Under the pieces are notes generated by a model that saw only the letters and a program-made list of their open reading frames with translations, did not search any database and was not told where the DNA came from. Positions 35,709-45,125 of a stretch of 64,000 bases of DNA are shown piece after piece; the first letter of the stretch is position 1, and every line of letters begins with the position of its first letter. This DNA comes from Legionella sp. (GTDB lineage: Bacteria; Pseudomonadota; Gammaproteobacteria; Legionellales; Legionellaceae). The stretch is taken from NCBI GenBank assembly GCA_013911415.1, contig JACETI010000005.1, forward strand, positions 1-64,000, written 5' to 3'. The translations under genes were made by a program, and so were the position numbers.

Positions 35709-35793
35709 AGCTCCCGAGATAATGCAGTCAACTTAAATGAAAGTAACCAAGATACCGAAGATACCTTAGATGATATTGTAATAAAAAAATTAA

Positions 35794-35810
35794 AGCCTTA
35801 AGTTAAGGCT
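35794..35810. terminator. Short perfect inverted repeat between convergent genes
   Basis: AGCCTTAA-G-TTAAGGCT is a perfect 8-bp inverted repeat at the end of the 34056 unit, facing the 3' end of the RiPP-type operon. The one-base centre means only part of it can form a loop. No strong T run. Confidence 0.35.
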
Positions 35811-35861
35811 CAGCAAACTTTTACTGAGGCTGCCTTAGCTAGGCGAAAAAATCATATACCC

Positions 35862-37067
35862 TTAATACGCTTGAAACCAATTTCTAAGCACAAACGATTC
35901 TTTTAAACCTTGATAACAATGCAAGGCCTCTTTTCCCAGTTGGCTAATTTTCCTTTCGATTTCTGCATCCGTTTCATCCCTTGCTAAAATGTTGACCAAT
36001 GCATTTAGTTGGTTACAACTTTTAAAACCAACGCCCCCTATACGTGATATCTTTTCGATAAAGCCTGTCAATACGTTGATTAACCTATCGTTGGTTTCAC
36101 ACTGAAACAATTCACCCAAATGCTTTAGAATATTTTGTTTACCTGGTGTGTTTCGCAGCACAGCAAGAAAAATCCTCTGCTCTTCATCTTTTATAAATCC
36201 TCTTAAGCTGTTGAGACGACGTGCCTGATACTGATTTTCCAAGGTTGCTAGTAATTCGTTTCCATAAGGCATTTTGCAAATATGCGTCGACAGCAGCCCC
36301 CTCTGTGTTAAATCAAAATCAAAAAAAGAAATCTCGGAAAATAAAACATACAACTCATAGAAAGAACATTGCATCACAAATTGATGCAACAGACGATAGC
36401 CTTCCTCTTTTTGATGATTGAGCATCAATTGAATAGATTTTATTTTTCGGTATAGAGCGATTTGTTGATCTTTTGCATTAAAGGCTACATATGGGGCGTA
36501 ATAACCGAGTTGAGGGTGGTGCTCTATACTTGTATTGTTACGAATAACAAGAGTAACGGAAGGCGAATCCAAATGAAAAACAGAGTGAATGAAACTTTTC
36601 CCCGCGGTGATTTTTTTTACATCGCCAGTGTGTAGGATAGATGTCTTCGATACCTTTAAATCACCGATGTAAAAAAAGGCATTAAATCGCTTTTTTGAAT
36701 GAAAATCATATTCAGTATGAATACTTCTCCCATGCAGCAACGAAAAAGCACCACTAAAACCATGTTGATGAATTGCGGTTGTGCCGTCCATCCAATAAAG
36801 CGCTTCAATGTAAAATTTTTGATGCTGATAAAGTGTCCATTGTAAGTCGCTAAATTTACATTTGATCTGGCAAACATCCAACGAAGTATTTAGAATCACA
36901 TATTGCAAAACATCTAAATAAGATACAGAATCAACAGTTGTAAAGTGTAACAGTGCCTCTTCTGCAATCTGGTTGAAGTTTTCCTCATTATAGTTAACCG
37001 CTCGCCATCTTTTTTCAACGTATTCACCCAACTCTTTGAAATATTCTTGAACATCGACAGAAGGCAT
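35862..37067 (-). CDS. Cupin-domain protein (cysteine-dioxygenase-like), last gene of the RiPP-type operon
   Basis: 401 residues, AAGGGG before the ATG. Residues about 80-190 form a cupin with the metal-binding pattern H-x-H-(x)n-G (AIHQHGFSGAFSLLHGRSIH) and a later His strand (GKSFIHSVFHLDSPSVTLVI), as in thiol dioxygenases and related iron enzymes. The remaining 200 residues are helical and unassigned. It starts 13 bases after the ATP-grasp gene, so it belongs to the same transcript. It may oxidise or otherwise tailor the product, but an immunity or sensing role cannot be excluded. Confidence 0.65.
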   Translation of the reverse strand: MPSVDVQEYFKELGEYVEKRWRAVNYNEENFNQIAEEALLHFTTVDSVSYLDVLQYVILNTSLDVCQIKCKFSDLQWTLYQHQKFYIEALYWMDGTTAIHQHGFSGAFSLLHGRSIHTEYDFHSKKRFNAFFYIGDLKVSKTSILHTGDVKKITAGKSFIHSVFHLDSPSVTLVIRNNTSIEHHPQLGYYAPYVAFNAKDQQIALYRKIKSIQLMLNHQKEEGYRLLHQFVMQCSFYELYVLFSEISFFDFDLTQRGLLSTHICKMPYGNELLATLENQYQARRLNSLRGFIKDEEQRIFLAVLRNTPGKQNILKHLGELFQCETNDRLINVLTGFIEKISRIGGVGFKSCNQLNALVNILARDETDAEIERKISQLGKEALHCYQGLKESFVLRNWFQAY

Positions 37068-37080
37068 TTCGTTACCCCTT

Positions 37081-38376
37081 TTATTGAATAATTTCCAGCA
37101 TTACCGACTTTAACCAGCGAGACGAAGGATGATTGGACTGATGATGCAAAGGGCCTAGCGGTTCGACATAAGCAAAATAATCCAATGACCAATGCGAATT
37201 ACCTTCTAAAATCATTGGCCCGTCTTCGCCTATGACAACATCAAAGGCTACGGTTCTTAAATCTAACAGCATCTTATGCGCCTGTAGGCAATTTGCAATA
37301 CTACCTCGAAGCAGTTTCTTAAGCTCAATTGAAATGGTTACATCAGTTTTTTGATCAAAAAACGGTTGTTTCTTAAACTCTAAATCCACATCGAGTGTCT
37401 CTAAGTCCAAAGGTAAGGTGGTATAACGTTTTGTCATTTTATTTGTCGTAATCGTACTGCTGATATTTGCTTGTGGAATTTCAAGTTGAATATAGAGCAG
37501 CTCTGAGTCTAAATCGATCGAAGATGTTTTTTTTGCGGTGATGATACGCACTGTCGAAACTGCGTTTTGAGTATTCATCTGCTTCATTGCAAAATGATCG
37601 GTGACAAAAGGCTGTATTAATATTTTTTGATGACGCTTTGCAATTTTATTTAAATAACTTTCAATCCCAACAGGACATGTGATTATATCGCCACGCATTG
37701 GAAGCAGTTGATAAACTTGGTCAATAGCACAACGTTTGATTAAAAAAGCATCCTCACTTCTAGCTCCTTTATTAGGCTTACAAAAAATAGCCCTTTTTAT
37801 AGCCTCTCTTTCTGCAACCGATTTTATATTAAATTTATCCGTCTCAATGCATACCCCCGTAACAGTTGGAATACCTTTGTTTTGCAATAGTGAGGAAAAA
37901 TGATGTTTATCTGCTAATAATTCCACAGCGCGGTGGTAATTTCTAAAGCATTGATTAATCCGATGGTGGAAATAGCCAAGCTCTTGTGTGTAAAGGTAAT
38001 CGAATAGATTTTTCTCCTTATTGTATAAACGAAACTCGAAGTAATCGCGCGCTGAAATAAGATGACAAATGCTGTAACGCAAAAGATCAAAAAATAAAGC
38101 CCACCTGGATAACCCATAATACTCTAATTGCGCTTCGGTTTGATGTTTACAGGCCCGATAACTACCAAGCCATGCCTCATAGCTCACCCAGCGTATATAA
38201 ATCAAACCATAGAAAAGCAACTTTAATGGGTTGTTACAATTTGCTAAAAAAATACGTCGGTGAAGCTGAATATTTTGGCAGGACTTAGGATACAAATAAC
38301 GGAGACTGAGAATAAAAGGAGGTATTCGAGCCTGTGCAAATCGAGCAAACAAAAGCAAAGAGCTACGAAGTATCAT
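37081..38376 (-). CDS. ATP-grasp enzyme (sugar-transfer-associated type) of the RiPP-type operon
   Basis: 431 residues from ATG 38376, which overlaps the stop of the preceding gene as ATGA; a longer TTG start at 38406 is unnecessary. The ATP-grasp fold shows KRAIFCKPNKGARSEDAFLI (nucleotide-binding strand/loop), IQPFVTDHFAMKQMN, TVRIITAKK, VAFDVVIGEDGPMILEGNSH (metal-binding end with E-x-N) as in the family first named for sugar-transfer loci. ATP-grasp enzymes activate carboxylates to join them to amines or other nucleophiles. Here the substrate may be the modified peptide. An N-terminal 150-residue helical part is unassigned. Confidence 0.75.
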   Translation of the reverse strand: MILRSSLLLFARFAQARIPPFILSLRYLYPKSCQNIQLHRRIFLANCNNPLKLLFYGLIYIRWVSYEAWLGSYRACKHQTEAQLEYYGLSRWALFFDLLRYSICHLISARDYFEFRLYNKEKNLFDYLYTQELGYFHHRINQCFRNYHRAVELLADKHHFSSLLQNKGIPTVTGVCIETDKFNIKSVAEREAIKRAIFCKPNKGARSEDAFLIKRCAIDQVYQLLPMRGDIITCPVGIESYLNKIAKRHQKILIQPFVTDHFAMKQMNTQNAVSTVRIITAKKTSSIDLDSELLYIQLEIPQANISSTITTNKMTKRYTTLPLDLETLDVDLEFKKQPFFDQKTDVTISIELKKLLRGSIANCLQAHKMLLDLRTVAFDVVIGEDGPMILEGNSHWSLDYFAYVEPLGPLHHQSNHPSSRWLKSVMLEIIQ

Positions 38377-40244
38377 GCGTCTACTGCATCCGGTGTATTC
38401 GCCCAATGACAGCCATTTGAGAAGTAATACTTTAACCAGTTATCGAGCTGATTAACCTTGATAATGTTCATCCATTTTTGCAGTGAAAGCGATAAATTCG
38501 TAAGATCAAGGTTTTTTGTTTGTGCATATAATTTGCCTATGTCAATGAGTGCGGATAAATCAGGGTGTAAATCCTCATTTAAAACCGGATAAGGCCATGT
38601 CCAAGATGGAGAAGAACCTCCCATACTGCCTTTGCTGGGTTGCCAGACAATTTCCTTGGGTAAGATATGTTCAATAGCGCGACGGTGTAAATATCGTTCA
38701 ACCCCGCGATACGTTTTTTCTGCACTAGGAATGGATAAAAAGCACTGAATCAAACGAGGATCAAGTAACGGCCACCGGTAATCCACGCCATACGAAGCAG
38801 CCAAGAGCGTGCAGTTTTCCATACGGGTCGTTACGTATGGCACCCAACCTTGTTCTAAAGTAAATTTATCGAGATTGTGATAACCATGGTCATTAACTCC
38901 AAGACGATCGTACGCTTCTTTAAGCGAATATCTGGCCAGCAACCTTGATTTCACAATGACATCTGGCCAGCGTGATTGCATCGCATTTTGCAAGGAAGGA
39001 CTAATTTTTCCCCCATTAGCATCGGTTCTGAAATATAGACGAATGAGCCTTAACAGTCGTGTTAAAGCGTTACCTTTTAAAACGTTATAAAGCGTCAGAA
39101 ATTGCTTATTTTTTAATAACTCATAGAGGCTTAAATCATCAACAATAGCTGTTACAAATTCATCGCCTCCAAAACCAGAGAGTAATGTCCGAATCCCATG
39201 CTTCTCAGCGATTTCATAAAAATTTTCTTGCTCGCAGGCAACCCTATGCTCAACGGGCGCCCCCAACGCTTGGAGCGCCCTTTCTTCTGGATAATTAGCG
39301 AGAGAGTGCGCGTATGAAATAAAGCTCTGTGAAATTTGATAATGCTGATTAACAAGCCCCACATAGAGAGGCTCATCTTTTAATACAGCGTAACTGAAAG
39401 TAAAAAATTTTTCCCGGGATGCAGTGTAAAATTGAGCGGCGTAAGCAGTGACTGCTGATGAATCAAGGCCACCGCTGAGTTCTGATGCGAGTGGGTCGCA
39501 GGTATCTACTCTGTTTTTGATCGCTTGCGCTAGCGTCGATTGATACAGTTCTACATAAGCTTCTCTAGAGGGCAAAATTGTTTTTCGCGTATGAAACTGA
39601 TGGTATTGATGCCTAACCAAGCCTCGAGAAGAGAGGGTTAATTCTTCTGATGGAGGTAGTTTAAAGATTTTATGATAAGCCGTTTTATAAAAATCCATAG
39701 ACGTTTCTGCCAGTAAAAATTTACAAGCCCAATCCATGTTCGGTCTAACATGTATACATTCTAGAAGATGAAATAATGCTAACGAAGAAGAGAATACAAA
39801 AACGTGCTCATCATCATAATAATAAAAGGGTTTAGTGCCCATATGATCACGTACGCAAACGATTTTCTTAGTCCGGGCATTATAAATAGCGAAACAAAAA
39901 TCCCCGAACAAATAGCTTGTAAAGGATTCACCAAAATGTCTATATGCTTTTAAAATCAGTTGCGTGTCTCTAAGCGCTTTTAATAAATGGTGGTCTATTC
40001 CTAATACCTGTGCTAATTCAAGACGGTTATCCAAACGAGCCCAAGCAACAATAACAAGATCGTCTAACTTATCAATCATTGTTCTTTGAGAATGATTTGC
40101 TGCTTGTGCCAACCAACAGTTTTCATGACGCCAGATAAGGATATGTTGGTGGTTCGGTGCAATATTTAAAGCAGGATGCGACCCATGTAAAATCGACGGT
40201 TGATGGGTAAACTTTGTTGTTTTATAAAAAATACCGTGAATCAA
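38373..40244 (-). CDS. Asparagine-synthetase-like protein, probable lasso cyclase (C protein)
   Basis: 623 residues from a TTG preceded by AAGGAGG. Residues 1-190 form the glutamine-amidotransferase-like domain (LVIVAWARLDNRLELAQVLG, GDFCFAIYN, VCVRDHMGTKPFYY), but the protein begins MIHGIF and lacks the Cys at position 2 needed for glutaminase activity. The synthetase domain carries the PPi loop ELSGGLDSSAV (near residue 255). Loss of the N-terminal Cys is the usual state of lasso cyclases (McjC type), which adenylate an Asp/Glu side chain and close the ring on Gly1. Placement next to B1/B2 genes and a kinase supports this role. Confidence 0.82.
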   Translation of the reverse strand: MIHGIFYKTTKFTHQPSILHGSHPALNIAPNHQHILIWRHENCWLAQAANHSQRTMIDKLDDLVIVAWARLDNRLELAQVLGIDHHLLKALRDTQLILKAYRHFGESFTSYLFGDFCFAIYNARTKKIVCVRDHMGTKPFYYYDDEHVFVFSSSLALFHLLECIHVRPNMDWACKFLLAETSMDFYKTAYHKIFKLPPSEELTLSSRGLVRHQYHQFHTRKTILPSREAYVELYQSTLAQAIKNRVDTCDPLASELSGGLDSSAVTAYAAQFYTASREKFFTFSYAVLKDEPLYVGLVNQHYQISQSFISYAHSLANYPEERALQALGAPVEHRVACEQENFYEIAEKHGIRTLLSGFGGDEFVTAIVDDLSLYELLKNKQFLTLYNVLKGNALTRLLRLIRLYFRTDANGGKISPSLQNAMQSRWPDVIVKSRLLARYSLKEAYDRLGVNDHGYHNLDKFTLEQGWVPYVTTRMENCTLLAASYGVDYRWPLLDPRLIQCFLSIPSAEKTYRGVERYLHRRAIEHILPKEIVWQPSKGSMGGSSPSWTWPYPVLNEDLHPDLSALIDIGKLYAQTKNLDLTNLSLSLQKWMNIIKVNQLDNWLKYYFSNGCHWANTPDAVDA

Positions 40245-40280
40245 GTGATTCCCTCCTTAGTTTCAAGCTTGATCTTTCCG

Positions 40281-41198
40281 TTAATGCGCTCTAGCTAATA
40301 ATCCTCGCGCTTGCAAGTCATTTTCAATGGCAGATACTAAAGCATCCAATTGAAAACCTGAGATTGGTCGTTTGATATGAACAACTGCAATCTCTGAAGC
40401 TATTTGCGCACATCTGGTAAAATAGAAATGCTCTTTTTGCAATACCTTTAAAAATTCTTTCCTGTATACATGGTAGTGCAGCGGCTGAATTTTTTGTGGC
40501 CCAGAAACAGATTCAAGTGTTACATCTTTTTTTTCGTGCACATTTAAAACATAAACAAGGGCCAGCGACAAGGGGTCACTGTGATATTGATTGCCTAAGG
40601 GTACAGCAAATTTCTCAAGGCGGGGCATGATTGGTTCTAAAGCTTCTGTCGACATGCCCAGTTCAGCGACTGCATCGGTACATAATTTAATCTGGGGGAA
40701 ACTCGGTAAGACATGATTTTGCCTGTTAATAGCACAAATATCGTCTGCTAAAATAGAATATCCTCTCTTCATGAACGCGCCAGACAGGGTCGATTTACCT
40801 AACCCCGAATCGGCCACAATAGAAATGCATCGATCCCCTACGCAAATCGCATTGCCATGTAATAAAAGCAGATCCCGCTGCATGAGTAAAATGCCCATAC
40901 AGGATCCTAATAAAAATAAACGCAATGTTGCCGAATTTACATTATTCAGTGGTTCAACGATTACTGTATTACCATTTTCAATCCAAAAACGAGCAACATC
41001 CGGGATATACAACCAAGTTCGCATTGGGGTGCTTTGAAAATGAGGATCATTAAAACCTAGGCCGTCGGGATTGACTGTACCGAGCTGAATCCTTATAAGA
41101 TTCGTGTCTGTCAGCCCTGTAGAACTTTCCCCGTTTGTTAGTTCGGGTAAAAATAGATCACTAAGAATCGATAGCTGAAAAGCTTGATAAGTGTACAC
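40281..41198 (-). CDS. HPr-kinase-like protein, probable peptide kinase of the RiPP-type operon
   Basis: 305 residues from a GTG with GAGG upstream. The C-terminal half is an HprK-type kinase: LLLLHGNAICVGDRCISIVA leads to the P-loop ADSGLGKSTLSGAF, followed by the G-Y-x-x-L-A-D-D-I-C strand with the catalytic/metal Asp pair. The bacillary HPr-phosphorylation partner system is not expected here. Related stand-alone kinases in lasso-peptide clusters phosphorylate the C-terminal Ser of the precursor (established for paeninodin-type clusters). The N-terminal 120 residues resemble the matching recognition part of those proteins. Confidence 0.8.
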   Translation of the reverse strand: MYTYQAFQLSILSDLFLPELTNGESSTGLTDTNLIRIQLGTVNPDGLGFNDPHFQSTPMRTWLYIPDVARFWIENGNTVIVEPLNNVNSATLRLFLLGSCMGILLMQRDLLLLHGNAICVGDRCISIVADSGLGKSTLSGAFMKRGYSILADDICAINRQNHVLPSFPQIKLCTDAVAELGMSTEALEPIMPRLEKFAVPLGNQYHSDPLSLALVYVLNVHEKKDVTLESVSGPQKIQPLHYHVYRKEFLKVLQKEHFYFTRCAQIASEIAVVHIKRPISGFQLDALVSAIENDLQARGLLARAH

Positions 41199-41281
41199 AA
41201 AGAACCTCTAAAGAATCTCTAAAGAACCTCTACTGGAGCTGCTTACGCTCTTATGAAAAGAGAGACAGACGCCAACTCGAA

Positions 41282-41827
41282 TTAGTAACTATAAATTGAT
41301 GGTTGTTTTGGCCATAAATAGGTAGATACAACGGTAAAAGCACAGCACGTATCCCCGCCGGTAATATTTACTGGTCCTGAGGTTAGCCATACATGCCCCT
41401 TTAACCCCTCATTTTTTTCTCTTGACTGAGCAAAGCCTAGGTATAGTACGTGAGGAATTTTGTAGTATTGACACCACATTTTTGCAATTAACGCTTGGGT
41501 TAAGCAATTGGATTCCCAAGGCGTATATTTTGATGATAATTTTACCATGCGGCCAATTTTTATTGCTCGTTGTAACTGCATAGGAGGAATTAGCGTTGAC
41601 AATCTTAAGGCTTGATGAAATTGACCAAAGTACCTTACAAAACGAGACAGCGGTAGCGTTAACGTCAAAAATCTAAAAACACCGCAAAGTATAAAATTTA
41701 AACCAAATGCAAACTTGTCTGGAGCAGATAGTTTCCAGTACGACAAAGACAGTCGCCTCATTTTTTTTAATCGTTCCCTAATGTTTCTTTTAGAATCCAT
41801 GGATGTACCAATTACAAAGGTGCTCAA
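41282..41827 (-). CDS. Transglutaminase-like lasso B2 leader protease
   Basis: 181 residues from a TTG at 41827, or 172 from ATG 41800. Catalytic triad of the B2/McjB C-terminal family is visible: Cys in WESNCLTQALIAKMW, His in GHVWLTSG, and a following acidic residue in NITGGD. An N-terminal helical part (YWKLSAPDKFAFGLNFILCG) with some hydrophobic character precedes. The family cleaves the leader peptide of the precursor with help from the PqqD-like B1 protein, which is encoded just upstream here. Confidence 0.85.
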   Translation of the reverse strand: MSTFVIGTSMDSKRNIRERLKKMRRLSLSYWKLSAPDKFAFGLNFILCGVFRFLTLTLPLSRFVRYFGQFHQALRLSTLIPPMQLQRAIKIGRMVKLSSKYTPWESNCLTQALIAKMWCQYYKIPHVLYLGFAQSREKNEGLKGHVWLTSGPVNITGGDTCCAFTVVSTYLWPKQPSIYSY

Positions 41828-41829
41828 AT

Positions 41830-41931
41830 TTAGTTAATTAACTTCTTTGTTGTCAATTTTCTCTTAGACTGTTGGTTTCTAGGAATGCAACTACAGCTGA
41901 TAAACACATGGTCATATTTATAGGCTTTCAT
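41830..41931 (-). CDS. Candidate small peptide gene between B1 and B2
   Basis: A 33-residue frame (MKAYKYDHVFISCSCIPRN then a Lys/Gln-rich end) whose ATG overlaps the PqqD stop as ATGA and whose stop lies two bases before the B2 start. The tight fit suggests it might be translated by coupling. It has no leader motif or core typical of lasso peptides, so a chance frame is equally possible. Confidence 0.25.
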   Translation of the reverse strand: MKAYKYDHVFISCSCIPRNQQSKRKLTTKKLIN

Positions 41932-42464
41932 GAAACTCTGCCCAAAATAAGCGTTGTCTCGGCAGGATTGCCTGGTTTACTTAGAGCCAACGTTGTTGGC
42001 AGAATATATGTCATTATAGGAGGCTCGTATGGGATTACATCTCCCTGAAAGAATATAGGTTCAGCATTTTTTAATAAGCATGCTTCTTTTGATTCAGAGC
42101 ATACTTCTTTCATTTCCTCATTAAGCAATCCTGCTTTGTACAACGACAGGATAAAAGTTGTCACATCTGCTGCAGCAATGTCCTGCTCTAACAAAAACTC
42201 AGCGCTTACCTTGAGAATAATTGTTGCGATGGATAAAGATTCTTGGAGTAAATCCCAGACAAACCTTCCCGTTGCATTAAGATGATAATAATTACCGGTC
42301 GCTTCATCAAAACAAATCAAATTATCTTCGAAGGGTGCTGAAAATATTTGGTTGTTTCTTATAAAGACACTATCAAGTGATAAATCATTCGTTGTCAGTG
42401 CTTGAATGAAAGGTGCTTGATGGTCTGGTTGCGTTGATAGGGTTGGTACAAGATCCTTTTGCAT
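41928..42464 (-). CDS. PqqD-family RiPP recognition protein (B1) with unusual C-terminal tail
   Basis: 178 residues, about twice the usual PqqD length. Residues 30-115 form the RiPP recognition element: VFIRNNQIFSAPFEDNLICF, the DEATGNYYHLNATGRFVWDLL core, then two helices ending YKAGLL. Residues 116-178 are an added tail containing PYEPPIMTYILPTTL and ending LILGRVS. The PYEPP-hydrophobic stretch resembles the Y-x-x-P-x-L leader motif that B1 proteins bind in lasso precursors, which raises the possibility of a fused or leader-mimicking segment (inference). It is the first gene of the operon, divergent from the acyltransferases. Confidence 0.82.
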   Translation of the reverse strand: MQKDLVPTLSTQPDHQAPFIQALTTNDLSLDSVFIRNNQIFSAPFEDNLICFDEATGNYYHLNATGRFVWDLLQESLSIATIILKVSAEFLLEQDIAAADVTTFILSLYKAGLLNEEMKEVCSESKEACLLKNAEPIFFQGDVIPYEPPIMTYILPTTLALSKPGNPAETTLILGRVS

Positions 42465-42720
42465 AAAACATTTCCAAAAATTGTTTATGTACGAGCGCGT
42501 TTCATTATACGTACCTGCATATCAAAGTAAACTTAGATGCGTCCTACCCTAAGGATTTAAATCTGGTGTTAAACATTCCAACATCTGCTTTATACCCAAG
42601 CACGATCATCCGCTTCGAGAAAATATCGTTGCCAGTCTCAAGCTAGCATCTTACACTTATCATTCATCTAAAGACGCAGGAAAAATGTTTTTTTATTGAA
42701 AGCACTATACAGGAAGTTTA

Positions 42721-43920
42721 ATGATGCTTCATAGCCTGACCTCGCTGCGTTTTTTTGCTGCAATAGTAGTTTTTCTCTCTCATCTAGGTGGATGTCTACG
42801 GCTTCATCCCGATAATATTCTTCTGACTCAAATCTTTTTTAAACTACACGGCGTGGGGGTTTTGTTTACAAGGCTTGGTATTCCAGTGCTCTCTTTATTT
42901 TTTATTTTAACGGGGTTTGTAATAACCTACTCTTATGAAAATAAGATAAAAATGCAGCACATTACAAAAGCTCAATTTCTTTTTTTAAGGTTTGCAAGAA
43001 TATACCCAACCTATTTGCTCACTATGCTGTTAATTTTTCCCTTACTCTTGTTTCAATTTATTAAGGAGTTACCGAGTGAACTTCATCCGTTCATTATATT
43101 GATTAAGGCTCTGACTAACCTAACATTATTGCACGGGTTTATTCCTGATCATTTTGCTTTACTAGAAAATCCTAACATACCGAGCTGGGGTCTCTCTGTT
43201 GATTTGTTTTTTTATTTTACTTTTTTTCATCTCGTTTCATTAAGTAAAAGGAAATTCTCTCTCCTTTCTGCTTCTCTTTTATTCTTCACGCTGACCTGGA
43301 TAATCTTAAAATTCAATCACTCAACAATGAATGAAACGTATGTCAAAGAGATATATTTGTTACTGACAAGCCCCTTTTTTCGGATCATTGATTTTTTAAC
43401 AGGAATGAGCTTAGCTAGGTTATTTATTTCCATGAAGGGCAAAATTTCTTACCCCTTGCTCTTTAATATTTTAGAGCCAGTCGCTATCGGATTGTATTTT
43501 TTATTTTTTTATCTCGAAGTGAAACTAAAGATTCATATCTTCTTTGCAATTGATCTGTATTACTTATTTCCAATGGGCCTGATAATTTTTGTATTTGCTT
43601 TTCAAAGAGGATTTATATCAAAACTGCTTCAAAATCGGCTACTTGTTTTTTTGGGTCACACATCCTTCGCAATATTTATCTACCATTGGATTATTCTCAC
43701 TTATGCGAGCAGAATAATTAGGCATTTTGATATTCAGATCCATACGACTTCCGCGGTTTTAGCAACGATAGCCACTGTTCTAGGCAGTACGATCCTCGTT
43801 TCCATTATCAATTATAAATATTTTGAACAGCCGTTATACCGCCTTGCACGTCGGTGGTGTGTTAATTTTGAAAATCCAAGGAACATACGTCGAGAGCAGA
43901 GCATCCCTTTAACCCTCTAA
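42721..43920 (+). CDS. Membrane acyltransferase (Acyltransferase_3/OafA family), copy 1
   Basis: 399 residues, AGGAAG before the ATG. About ten membrane segments. The N-terminus holds the family motif (LTSLRFFAAIVVFLSHLGG with the R-F-x-A-A and catalytic His), FILTGFVITYSYE, LRFARIYPTYLL and a late H-T-S-F-A-I-F-I-Y-H-W pair. Members transfer acyl groups to sugars of LPS, peptidoglycan or secondary metabolites at the inner membrane. The next gene is a close tandem paralogue. It is divergent from the RiPP-type operon, so acyl tailoring of that product is possible but unproven. Confidence 0.9.
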   Translation: MMLHSLTSLRFFAAIVVFLSHLGGCLRLHPDNILLTQIFFKLHGVGVLFTRLGIPVLSLFFILTGFVITYSYENKIKMQHITKAQFLFLRFARIYPTYLLTMLLIFPLLLFQFIKELPSELHPFIILIKALTNLTLLHGFIPDHFALLENPNIPSWGLSVDLFFYFTFFHLVSLSKRKFSLLSASLLFFTLTWIILKFNHSTMNETYVKEIYLLLTSPFFRIIDFLTGMSLARLFISMKGKISYPLLFNILEPVAIGLYFLFFYLEVKLKIHIFFAIDLYYLFPMGLIIFVFAFQRGFISKLLQNRLLVFLGHTSFAIFIYHWIILTYASRIIRHFDIQIHTTSAVLATIATVLGSTILVSIINYKYFEQPLYRLARRWCVNFENPRNIRREQSIPLTL

Positions 43921-43955: not shown

Positions 43956-45125
43956 ATGATTTACAGCCTAACTTCAATGCGATTTTTCGCGTCAATGATC
44001 ATCGTTATTTCCCACATCGGTTATTATCTAAACCTACATCCTGAAAATTATTTAATTCATACTCTTTTCTTTCAAACACACGGTCGAGCACCCTTATTTA
44101 CTTTGCTCGGTACGCCTTTAATGACGTTATTTTTTATCCTTACGGGCTTTGTTATCACTTATCGTTATGAATATCAAATAAAAAATCAATCAATCACTAA
44201 TCATCATTTTCTGATTGCACGTTTTGCAAGGCTATATCCCACTTACTTACTGACTTTAGGCTTAAGCCTTCCCCTTCTATTTATCAATAACATCTACACC
44301 GATGATTACTTTAATACTTTGAATGTAATCTCAAAAACACTTTTGAATTTGTGTTTATTGCATAGTTATGTTCCCTATTACGATATTATGTCCAACGTTA
44401 ACCCGCCTATTTGGACGCTTTCAGTCGATGTTCTCTTTTATTTATCCTTTCCGTTCCTTATCAAAATGCGACCGAGTAAGTTGTATGTATTCACCCTTTT
44501 ACTGCTCTTAATTGTTTTCACATGTGCCACCTTAGAGTTTTATCAAGAAATAATTATTTCTCGTATATTCTCTTTTATAACCAGTCCATTCTTTCGGATC
44601 GTTGACTTTATCATAGGCATTCATTTAGCAAGGTTATTTATTGCTTTAAAGGATCGTGCTCCTGGCTCGGGGCTTTTTCATGTCTTTGAGCCTTTGTCTA
44701 TTGGCGTTTATTTGCTGTTCTTTTGCCTTGAAAGAAAATTCATCATACCTGTTGTTTACGCCTTTGATTTGTTTTATTTATTGCCAATTGGCTTCATCGT
44801 GCTCACCTTTGCTTTTCAAAAAGGATTTATTTCGAGGTTCCTTCAACTTCGATCACTTGTCTTGCTGGGTAATGCCTCTTACGCAATTTATATTTACCAC
44901 TGGATGATTATTTCTTACACAAACTATTGGTTGAAAATTTTTAATATTCCGACACATGCCACGTTACTTGTCGTATCTCTCATGTTATTAGTCATTGGCG
45001 CTTCCATAGGGGTAGCATTATTAAGTTATACCTATTTTGAACAACCGCTAAATAATTTTATACGTCGGAGATATACCGACCACAGGCCTACGTTGTCTCA
45101 ACAAAAAGCAGTGTTTCCAACTTAA
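43956..45125 (+). CDS. Membrane acyltransferase (Acyltransferase_3/OafA family), copy 2
   Basis: 389 residues, starting 35 bases after copy 1 and aligned with it along its whole length (LTSMRFFASMIIVISHIGYY, LIARFARLYPTYLLTLGLSL, SPFFRIVDFIIGIHLARLFI, NASYAIYIYHWMI), so a tandem duplication that has since diverged. Catalytic His and the R-F-x-A motif are kept. Its last four bases overlap the convergent oxygenase gene. Substrate unknown; surface glycan O-acylation is the usual role. Confidence 0.9.
   Translation: MIYSLTSMRFFASMIIVISHIGYYLNLHPENYLIHTLFFQTHGRAPLFTLLGTPLMTLFFILTGFVITYRYEYQIKNQSITNHHFLIARFARLYPTYLLTLGLSLPLLFINNIYTDDYFNTLNVISKTLLNLCLLHSYVPYYDIMSNVNPPIWTLSVDVLFYLSFPFLIKMRPSKLYVFTLLLLLIVFTCATLEFYQEIIISRIFSFITSPFFRIVDFIIGIHLARLFIALKDRAPGSGLFHVFEPLSIGVYLLFFCLERKFIIPVVYAFDLFYLLPIGFIVLTFAFQKGFISRFLQLRSLVLLGNASYAIYIYHWMIISYTNYWLKIFNIPTHATLLVVSLMLLVIGASIGVALLSYTYFEQPLNNFIRRRYTDHRPTLSQQKAVFPT

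What the first reader, a model, noticed from the sequence alone, without database searches (positions are those of the whole stretch)
35862..42464. Lasso-type RiPP operon with kinase, ATP-grasp and cupin, but no certain precursor or exporter
The six genes in order encode PqqD, transglutaminase-like B2, HprK-like kinase, Asn-synthetase-like cyclase, ATP-grasp and cupin. The first four are the established lasso set with a tailoring kinase. The ATP-grasp gene is coupled to the cyclase by ATGA and the cupin follows 13 bases later, so both belong to the pathway by position. I know of no described lasso cluster with this pair. The lack of an ABC exporter in a presumed intracellular organism is also odd.
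Basis: partly seen in the sequence, partly recalled or inferred. Interest (0 to 1): 0.85.

Follow-up and report, generated by a model that had tools for sequence, protein, structure and literature searches.

The report
Lasso peptide fused to its chaperone
A relative of Legionella carries a gene set for making a knotted 'lasso' peptide, and the raw peptide appears to be built as the tail of the very protein that normally has to find and deliver it, which would be easy to miss when looking for a separate small gene.

Summary
The six genes are real and intact and form a kinase-bearing (paeninodin-like) lasso-peptide operon in a Legionellaceae genome. The 'missing' precursor is most likely the C-terminal tail of the first gene. 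B1 is 178 aa: an RRE/PqqD domain whose model matches lasso B1 structures, then about 60 residues with a YxxP leader, a glutamate at ring position 8 and a C-terminal Ser. A second genome of the family (G024) has the same architecture. Elsewhere in the family B1 has no such tail, and small separate precursors of the same anatomy occur. A register-anchored profile from 14 separate precursors ranks the two tails 1st and 4th of 12,569 frames; plain HMMER does not detect the window tail. The ATP-grasp is tied to the pathway: in 3 of 3 loci with both genes on one contig its start overlaps the cyclase stop (ATGA), but only 4 of 9 genomes with such a cyclase have it. The 'cupin' is an orphan (only hit in 143 order and 369 class genomes). 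The operon has no exporter; some relatives have one beside B1. Product, threading, phosphorylation and ATP-grasp chemistry are inferred, not shown.

The parts
41928..42464 (-). B1-A fusion: RRE/PqqD chaperone with a C-terminal lasso-precursor-like tail (178 aa)
   Evidence: PF05402; 62 residues beyond the domain, against 14 or fewer in 38 of 41 PqqD frames compared
42123..42311 (-). RRE/PqqD domain
   Evidence: Foldseek best six hits are lasso B1-leader complexes
41982..42029 (-). predicted leader segment, residues 146-161, YEPPIMTYILPTTLAL
   Evidence: YxxP motif and register
41931..41981 (-). predicted core, residues 162-178, SKPGNPAETTLILGRVS (ring Ser162-Glu169; alternative start Leu161, ring of 9)
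   Evidence: register with separate precursors; inferred
41282..41827 (-). B2 leader peptidase (in-frame ATG at 41800)
   Evidence: NF033537 61.7 bits; Cys and His aligned with relatives
40281..41198 (-). HprK-like kinase K
   Evidence: His, Lys, Asp-Asp positions kept
38373..40244 (-). lasso-type macrolactam cyclase C (TTG start)
   Evidence: lass_lactam_cya 286 bits; no Cys2, SGGLDSS and SGFGGDE kept
37081..38376 (-). ATP-grasp ligase (PF14397), start overlapping the C stop (ATGA)
   Evidence: same overlap in L027 and L028
35862..37067 (-). cupin-like orphan protein, last gene
   Evidence: HxH...H by eye; no family; no relative found
42504..42531 (-). sigma-70-like site TTTACT-16-TATAAT before B1
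   Evidence: the number of such sites in the region is at chance level
41827..41856 (-). promoter-like site TTGACA-18-TAAATT in the B1-B2 gap
   Evidence: weak
35793..35811 (-). terminator-like hairpin with T run after the cupin-like gene
   Evidence: 8 found in the region, 5.5 in shuffles; 8-nt perfect inverted repeat

Best explanation
This is a paeninodin-like lasso-peptide operon in which the recognition protein B1 and the precursor A are one polypeptide. Shown: the genes, their families and catalytic residues, the RRE fold, the anatomy of the tail, the same kind of fusion in a second genome, tail-less B1 and separate precursors elsewhere in the family, and the repeated cyclase/ATP-grasp overlap. 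Inferred: the YxxP stretch docks in the B1 groove in cis (or on a neighbouring copy); K phosphorylates the C-terminal Ser178 (less likely another Ser) while the core is still attached; B2 cuts before Ser162 and leaves a spent B1-leader protein; C joins the Ser162 amino group to the Glu169 side chain; the ATP-grasp makes a further amide or ester bond. B1 would then be used once per peptide instead of serving as a reusable chaperone.
For: (1) Of 43 PqqD places in 143 order genomes, 42 frames were recovered; one is part of a long membrane protein; of the other 41, 38 end within 14 residues of the domain, and only window (62), G024:C90 (53) and G018:C170 (53, another motif) have longer tails. (2) Window tail YEPP and G024 tail YQAP both have Glu at Tyr+23 and a C-terminal Ser. 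(3) Separate precursor-like frames in relatives have the same layout. (4) A register-anchored score from 14 separate precursors ranks the G024 tail 1st (24.3) and the window tail 4th (12.2) of 12,569 other frames; left-out members score 9.9 to 49.4. (5) The loose pattern arises in 1138 of 200,000 shuffles of the window tail and 617 of 200,000 of the G024 tail. (6) RRE model: best six PDB hits are lasso B1 with leader, two of them at E<=0.001. (7) The own genome has one PqqD, one B2-type match and no match to the separate-precursor profile at E<=1. (8) Catalytic residues of B2, K and C kept. (9) C/ATP-grasp ATGA overlap in 3 of 3 loci with both on one contig.
Against: HMMER with the separate-precursor alignment does not detect the window tail (rank 2354 of the non-training frames; G024 tail rank 29), and the A4 profile finds nothing in the own genome, the tail included. 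Residue -2 would be Ala, not Thr or Ile/Val (Ala also in the G031:C12 precursor). AF2 leaves the tail disordered (only three sequences in the alignment). No genome of the window's genus was in the set, so conservation of the tail is untested. The pattern was settled after I had seen both tails, and the 14 precursors were picked and aligned by hand. Two other of 702 window frames and 4 other of 582 long frames match the loose pattern. ATG codon 118 could allow separate in-frame translation. In two described systems the kinase targets Ser3 of the core, not the last Ser (PMC10368454, PMC13381572, passages); the predicted window core has no Ser3.
Confidence: 0.62

Rival explanations
1. The true precursor is a separate gene elsewhere in the genome, acting in trans; the B1 tail is a decayed or regulatory copy, for instance a cis pseudo-leader that occupies and controls the RRE.
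For: In relatives several precursor-like genes lie on contigs other than those of the B2-C or K-B1 genes (G033:C21, G031:C12, G032:C18). The window tail is a weak match and fails HMMER.
Against: The own genome (98% complete) has no match to the separate-precursor profile at E<=1. The tail keeps the ring Glu and the terminal Ser besides the leader motif. G024 has the same architecture.
Confidence: 0.2
2. Two products from one frame: the precursor is also, or only, made by translation from the in-frame ATG at codon 118, so the 'fusion' is an overlapping gene whose free 61-residue precursor does the work.
For: ATG at codon 118; a product of 61 aa is close to the separate precursors of 42-60 aa.
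Against: GAGG lies only about 2 nt before that ATG; the G024 linker has no ATG, only GTG/TTG codons.
Confidence: 0.12
3. The tail is an ordinary disordered extension with a chance resemblance, and the operon is decaying or makes something other than a lasso peptide.
For: The loose pattern alone is not rare enough: 4 other of 582 long frames match. No exporter in the operon.
Against: All six frames and the catalytic residues are intact. The anchored score ranks 4th of 12,569, and only 3 of 41 PqqD frames have a free tail at all.
Confidence: 0.06

Closest known systems
Paeninodin-type phosphorylated lasso clusters (PadeK, ThcoK, SyanK, PsmK/PsmN; PMC8498205 and PMC9266682, passages)
   Same: Split B1/B2, C, HprK-like kinase with His-Lys-Asp-Asp, C-terminal Ser in the precursor
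   Different: Precursor fused to B1; extra ATP-grasp and cupin-like gene; no exporter or nucleotidyltransferase in the operon
bsf cluster of Bradymonas sediminis (PMC10368454, passages)
   Same: YxxPxL leader, ring of eight (Gly1-Asp8), residue other than Thr at -2, B1 + B2 + kinase
   Different: Separate precursor; Ile(-2); the kinase acts on Ser3
LPP family of Bacillota (PMC13381572, passages)
   Same: Discrete RRE plus HprK-like kinase acting on a precursor bound through a W/YxxP-type leader
   Different: SpI-type peptidase, mostly no lasso cyclase; precursor not fused
McjB-type fused B proteins (RRE joined to the B2 protease; PMC12710340, passages)
   Same: Lasso RRE fused to another part of the pathway
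   Different: There the RRE is joined to the protease, here to the substrate
PqqD proteins with a DPIHDV...GWP tail (seen here: L121, L089, L204)
   Same: PqqD domain with a free C-terminal peptide
   Different: Tail motif is not of lasso type; function unknown to me

Membership tests
Lasso peptide biosynthesis | B1 with RRE domain | tested here: met
   PF05402 over cut-off; Foldseek best six hits lasso B1-leader complexes
Lasso peptide biosynthesis | B2 transglutaminase-like leader peptidase | tested here: met
   NF033537 61.7 bits, cut-off 33; Cys/His kept
Lasso peptide biosynthesis | Asn-synthetase-like macrolactam cyclase, not a glutamine-using synthetase | tested here: met
   Best model lass_lactam_cya (286 bits; below its cut-off 525), AsnB-type model 152 bits; no Cys2
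Lasso peptide biosynthesis | Precursor with W/YxxP leader and Asp/Glu at core position 7-9 | tested here: inconclusive
   B1 tail fits in the anchored profile (rank 4 of 12,569) but not in HMMER (rank 2354)
Lasso peptide biosynthesis | Threaded lariat product | not testable with these tools
   needs mass spectrometry or NMR
Paeninodin-like phosphorylated lasso peptides | HprK-like kinase with His-Lys-Asp-Asp | tested here: met
   LLHGN, GKST and ADD aligned with relatives; motif named in PMC9266682 (passage)
Paeninodin-like phosphorylated lasso peptides | C-terminal Ser in the precursor | tested here: met
   Ser178 ends the B1 tail, if the tail is the precursor
Paeninodin-like phosphorylated lasso peptides | D exporter in the cluster | tested here: not met
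   no ABC frame in the operon; some described kinase clusters also lack it (mmv lacks D, PMC10368454, passage)
Graspetides | Graspetide-type ATP-grasp ligase and core motif | tested here: not met
   only PF14397 over cut-off; no PDB sequence match up to E 1; no curated graspetide model over cut-off

The most novel reading that the evidence does not exclude
Single-use, self-presenting lasso biosynthesis: the recognition element and its substrate are one protein, so leader binding is intramolecular, B1 is consumed with each peptide, and the exposed C-terminus is phosphorylated and further ligated by a cyclase-coupled ATP-grasp, giving a lasso peptide with a tailoring step that I have not seen described.
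Probability: 0.45. Interest if true: 0.75.

Novelty: new variant of a known kind. Interest (0 to 1): 0.62.

Why it matters
A search for a short separate precursor gene would call this cluster precursor-less. If B1-A fusions are real, 'orphan' lasso clusters should be re-read for long B1 proteins, and nature offers a ready design for leader-in-cis lasso engineering. The repeated cyclase/ATP-grasp pair points to an unexplored tailoring reaction. It also draws attention to Legionellaceae as a source of many kinase-associated, partly sulfotransferase-associated lasso-like clusters.

Tried and rejected
HMMER with the separate-precursor alignment: does not find the window tail and finds nothing in the own genome. 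Structure of the ATP-grasp: mean pLDDT 44.9, not used for a fold search. PDB sequence search for the ATP-grasp: no match up to E 1. Cupin-like protein: no family, no relative in 143 order or 369 class genomes or in the plasmid collection (phages not searched); whole-protein phmmer gave one chance hit, the middle part six chance-level cysteine dioxygenase entries. Exporter elsewhere: 15 ABC matches in the own genome; for the best (C1, 31%) none of the 25 models shown is over its cut-off, the second (C9) is MsbA; the other 13 were not named; an unlinked exporter is neither shown nor excluded. Common origin of the two fusions: in a tree of 41 RRE domains they fall on different sides of a 96/90 branch, but G024's row is long and its place unsure. 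More fusions in the phylum: 178 of 398 genomes have a PqqD match; the list shown was cut. I fetched 40 of the 43 other places shown with open frames of 130-280 aa; my profile found the domain in 26 of these 40; none has a lasso-type tail, one has a DPVHD...GWP tail. Frames above 300 aa and the unlisted matches were not looked at. Class sample with the G024 fusion as query: 10 of 369 genomes matched, among them no further lasso-type fusion in the 7 loci printed. Prior report of such a fusion: searches listed none by title or abstract; I read only passages of seven papers. ATP-grasp in lasso clusters: one search gave one review with a single mention, which was not among the passages shown. Lasso peptides in Legionella: 20 papers hold both terms, none has it in the title; they were not opened (PMC9576775 names Legionella once).

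Rows left out: of the pattern hits I kept 14 as precursors by eye (place beside pathway genes, YxxP, acid, end); others, such as L032 815-1090, L036 2229-2450 and L128 5856-6083, were left out. One of the patterns asked for a terminal Ser/Thr, so the shared terminal Ser is in part selection; those did not ask for it. Seven further precursors found with the profile all end in Ser, but the profile itself models it.
Full report
What is there. Six intact genes lie head to tail on the minus strand from 42464 down to 35862: PqqD/RRE (B1), lasso B2 protease, HprK-like kinase (K), Asn-synthetase-like cyclase (C), ATP-grasp of the PF14397 kind, and a protein without family match that reads like a cupin. 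Cyclase and ATP-grasp overlap by ATGA; the last gene follows after 13 bases. A terminator-like hairpin lies 50 bases after it and a promoter-like site about 40 bases before B1; the number of promoter-like sites in the region is at chance and that of terminators only slightly above, so this is weak support. The genome (2.5 Mb, 15 contigs, 98% complete) has one match each to the B2 family and the PqqD family. The genus is not known to me.

The machinery is of lasso type and looks functional. B2 passes the curated cut-off of NF033537. C scores best with the lasso cyclase model (286 bits against 152 for the asparagine synthase model), though below that model's own cut-off of 525. It lacks the Cys2 of glutamine-using enzymes and keeps SGGLDSS and SGFGGDE; K keeps the His, Lys and Asp-Asp positions; B2 keeps Cys and His (the roles are recalled or from PMC9266682). 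The predicted RRE domain (block pLDDT 70-91 for residues 41-120) has as its best six PDB matches TbiB1 (5v1u, 5v1v) and a second lasso B1 (6jx3), each solved with its leader (E 1e-4 to 1e-2).

The precursor. B1 is 178 aa long. Of 43 PqqD places in 143 genomes of the order, 42 frames were recovered; one is part of a long membrane protein. In 38 of the other 41 the frame ends within 14 residues of the domain. The exceptions are the window (62 residues), G024:C90 (53) and G018:C170 (53, of another kind). The window and G024 tails share an anatomy: Tyr-x-x-Pro, a glutamate 23 residues after the Tyr, and a C-terminal Ser. Separate precursor-like genes with this anatomy lie in relatives' clusters and, found with a profile, also on other contigs: for example G004 ...IYHKPQTTLFLLESLDIQ/SGVESVDE/SNNGTLIS, G031 ...VYQPPQLITLESIEAE/GGLNNVIE/NNSGVLMS, G034 ...NYVTPKLIELEKIQPKN/GDTTSNPE/NTSGTIS (slashes: predicted cut and ring end). 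In this register the window tail reads YEPPIMTYILPTTLAL/SKPGNPAE/TTLILGRVS. A ring of eight and a residue other than Thr at -2 are known from the bsf cluster (PMC10368454, passages); kinases that modify the C-terminal Ser are described in PMC8498205 and PMC9266682 (passages), while the bsf and lpp kinases act on Ser3 (PMC10368454, PMC13381572, passages).

How strong is it? A position score made only from 14 separate precursors puts the G024 tail first (24.3) and the window tail fourth (12.2) of 12,569 other frames; its own members score 9.9 to 49.4 when left out in turn. Shuffled tails show the loose pattern in 1138 and 617 of 200,000. Against this, a HMMER profile does not see the window tail (rank 2354) and sees the G024 tail only at rank 29, and the A4 profile finds nothing in the own genome. 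The pattern was settled after I had seen both tails, and the precursors were chosen and aligned by hand. I hold the fusion as likely, not proven. An in-frame ATG at codon 118 could give a separate precursor, but its GAGG is only about 2 nt away, and the G024 linker has no ATG (it has GTG and TTG codons); GC content does not differ between domain and tail. The two fusions may be separate events (21% identity; different sides of a 96/90 branch, with a long G024 row of unsure place).

The ATP-grasp. Four of 143 genomes have it (window, G030, G033, G038). In the first three it starts inside the cyclase stop. In G038 it lies on a contig where I recognise no lasso gene, while the cyclase of that genome ends at a contig edge. 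Nine genomes have a cyclase match at E<=1e-30; 4 of the 9 have the ATP-grasp. The relatives are 36-38% identical to the window's protein, with D379, E391 and N393 among the invariant residues, as expected of an active ligase (recalled). The substrate is unknown; joining an amine or amino acid to a carboxylate of the peptide is the natural guess.

The cupin-like protein and the exporter. The last protein has no match in the 142 other genomes of the order, in the 368 others of a class sample or in plasmids. Position, the 13-base gap and the hairpin after it make it likely part of the transcript; nothing more can be said. In some relatives an ABC exporter gene follows B1: L027 (Pfam), L122 (tblastn), L028 (by frame order). 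The window operon has none; of the 15 own-genome ABC matches the two best are unspecific and MsbA.

Proposed working. B1-A is translated; its YxxP stretch pairs with the RRE groove of the same or a neighbouring molecule; K phosphorylates the terminal Ser; B2 cuts before Ser162; C closes the Ser162-Glu169 lactam around the tail; the ATP-grasp adds a further bond. Only the parts are shown; each step is inferred from the named families. Searches of the held library listed no paper whose title or shown abstract describes a B1-precursor fusion or a Legionellaceae lasso peptide; passages of seven papers were read, none whole.

Noticed in passing
L027 8952-13849, L028 5072-10537; also L122, L125, L126, L135, L137, L138, L140: Many loci of the family pair the HprK-like kinase and B1 with a sulfotransferase (PF00685 in L027, tblastn in the seven others), some also with an ABC exporter, an NTP_transf_5 protein or a fused ATP-sulfurylase/APS-kinase: a cassette that would make and use activated sulfate, pointing to sulfated and phosphorylated lasso-like peptides.
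   Followed up: partly
L121 457-930; L089 382-819; L204 763-1275: Another kind of PqqD protein carries a free C-terminal peptide of the form ...DLqdLilvDPIHDV...GWP; in L089 genes that look by eye like an HprK-type kinase and glycosyltransferases follow. It may be a second RRE-substrate fusion family.
   Followed up: no
L030 2941-5773, L033 3754-6510: A separate precursor-like gene is followed by a secreted-looking protein of about 450 aa (NHL repeat match in L030), then kinase and B1; no B2 or C hit in the 15 kb of L030, and L033 ends at a contig edge.
   Followed up: no
L154, L155, L157 (G033:C21, G031:C12, G032:C18): Precursor-like genes lie on contigs other than those of the K-B1 genes of the same genomes, so several precursors may share one enzyme set.
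   Followed up: partly
L077 1289-1459 and 1432-1767: In a genome of another family of the class, a WxxP precursor-like frame ending in Ser stands just before a tail-less PqqD gene.
   Followed up: no
window 42721-43920 and 43956-45125, plus strand: Two tandem, similar membrane proteins stand divergent to the operon; the first matches Acyl_transf_3, the second was not scanned.
   Followed up: no
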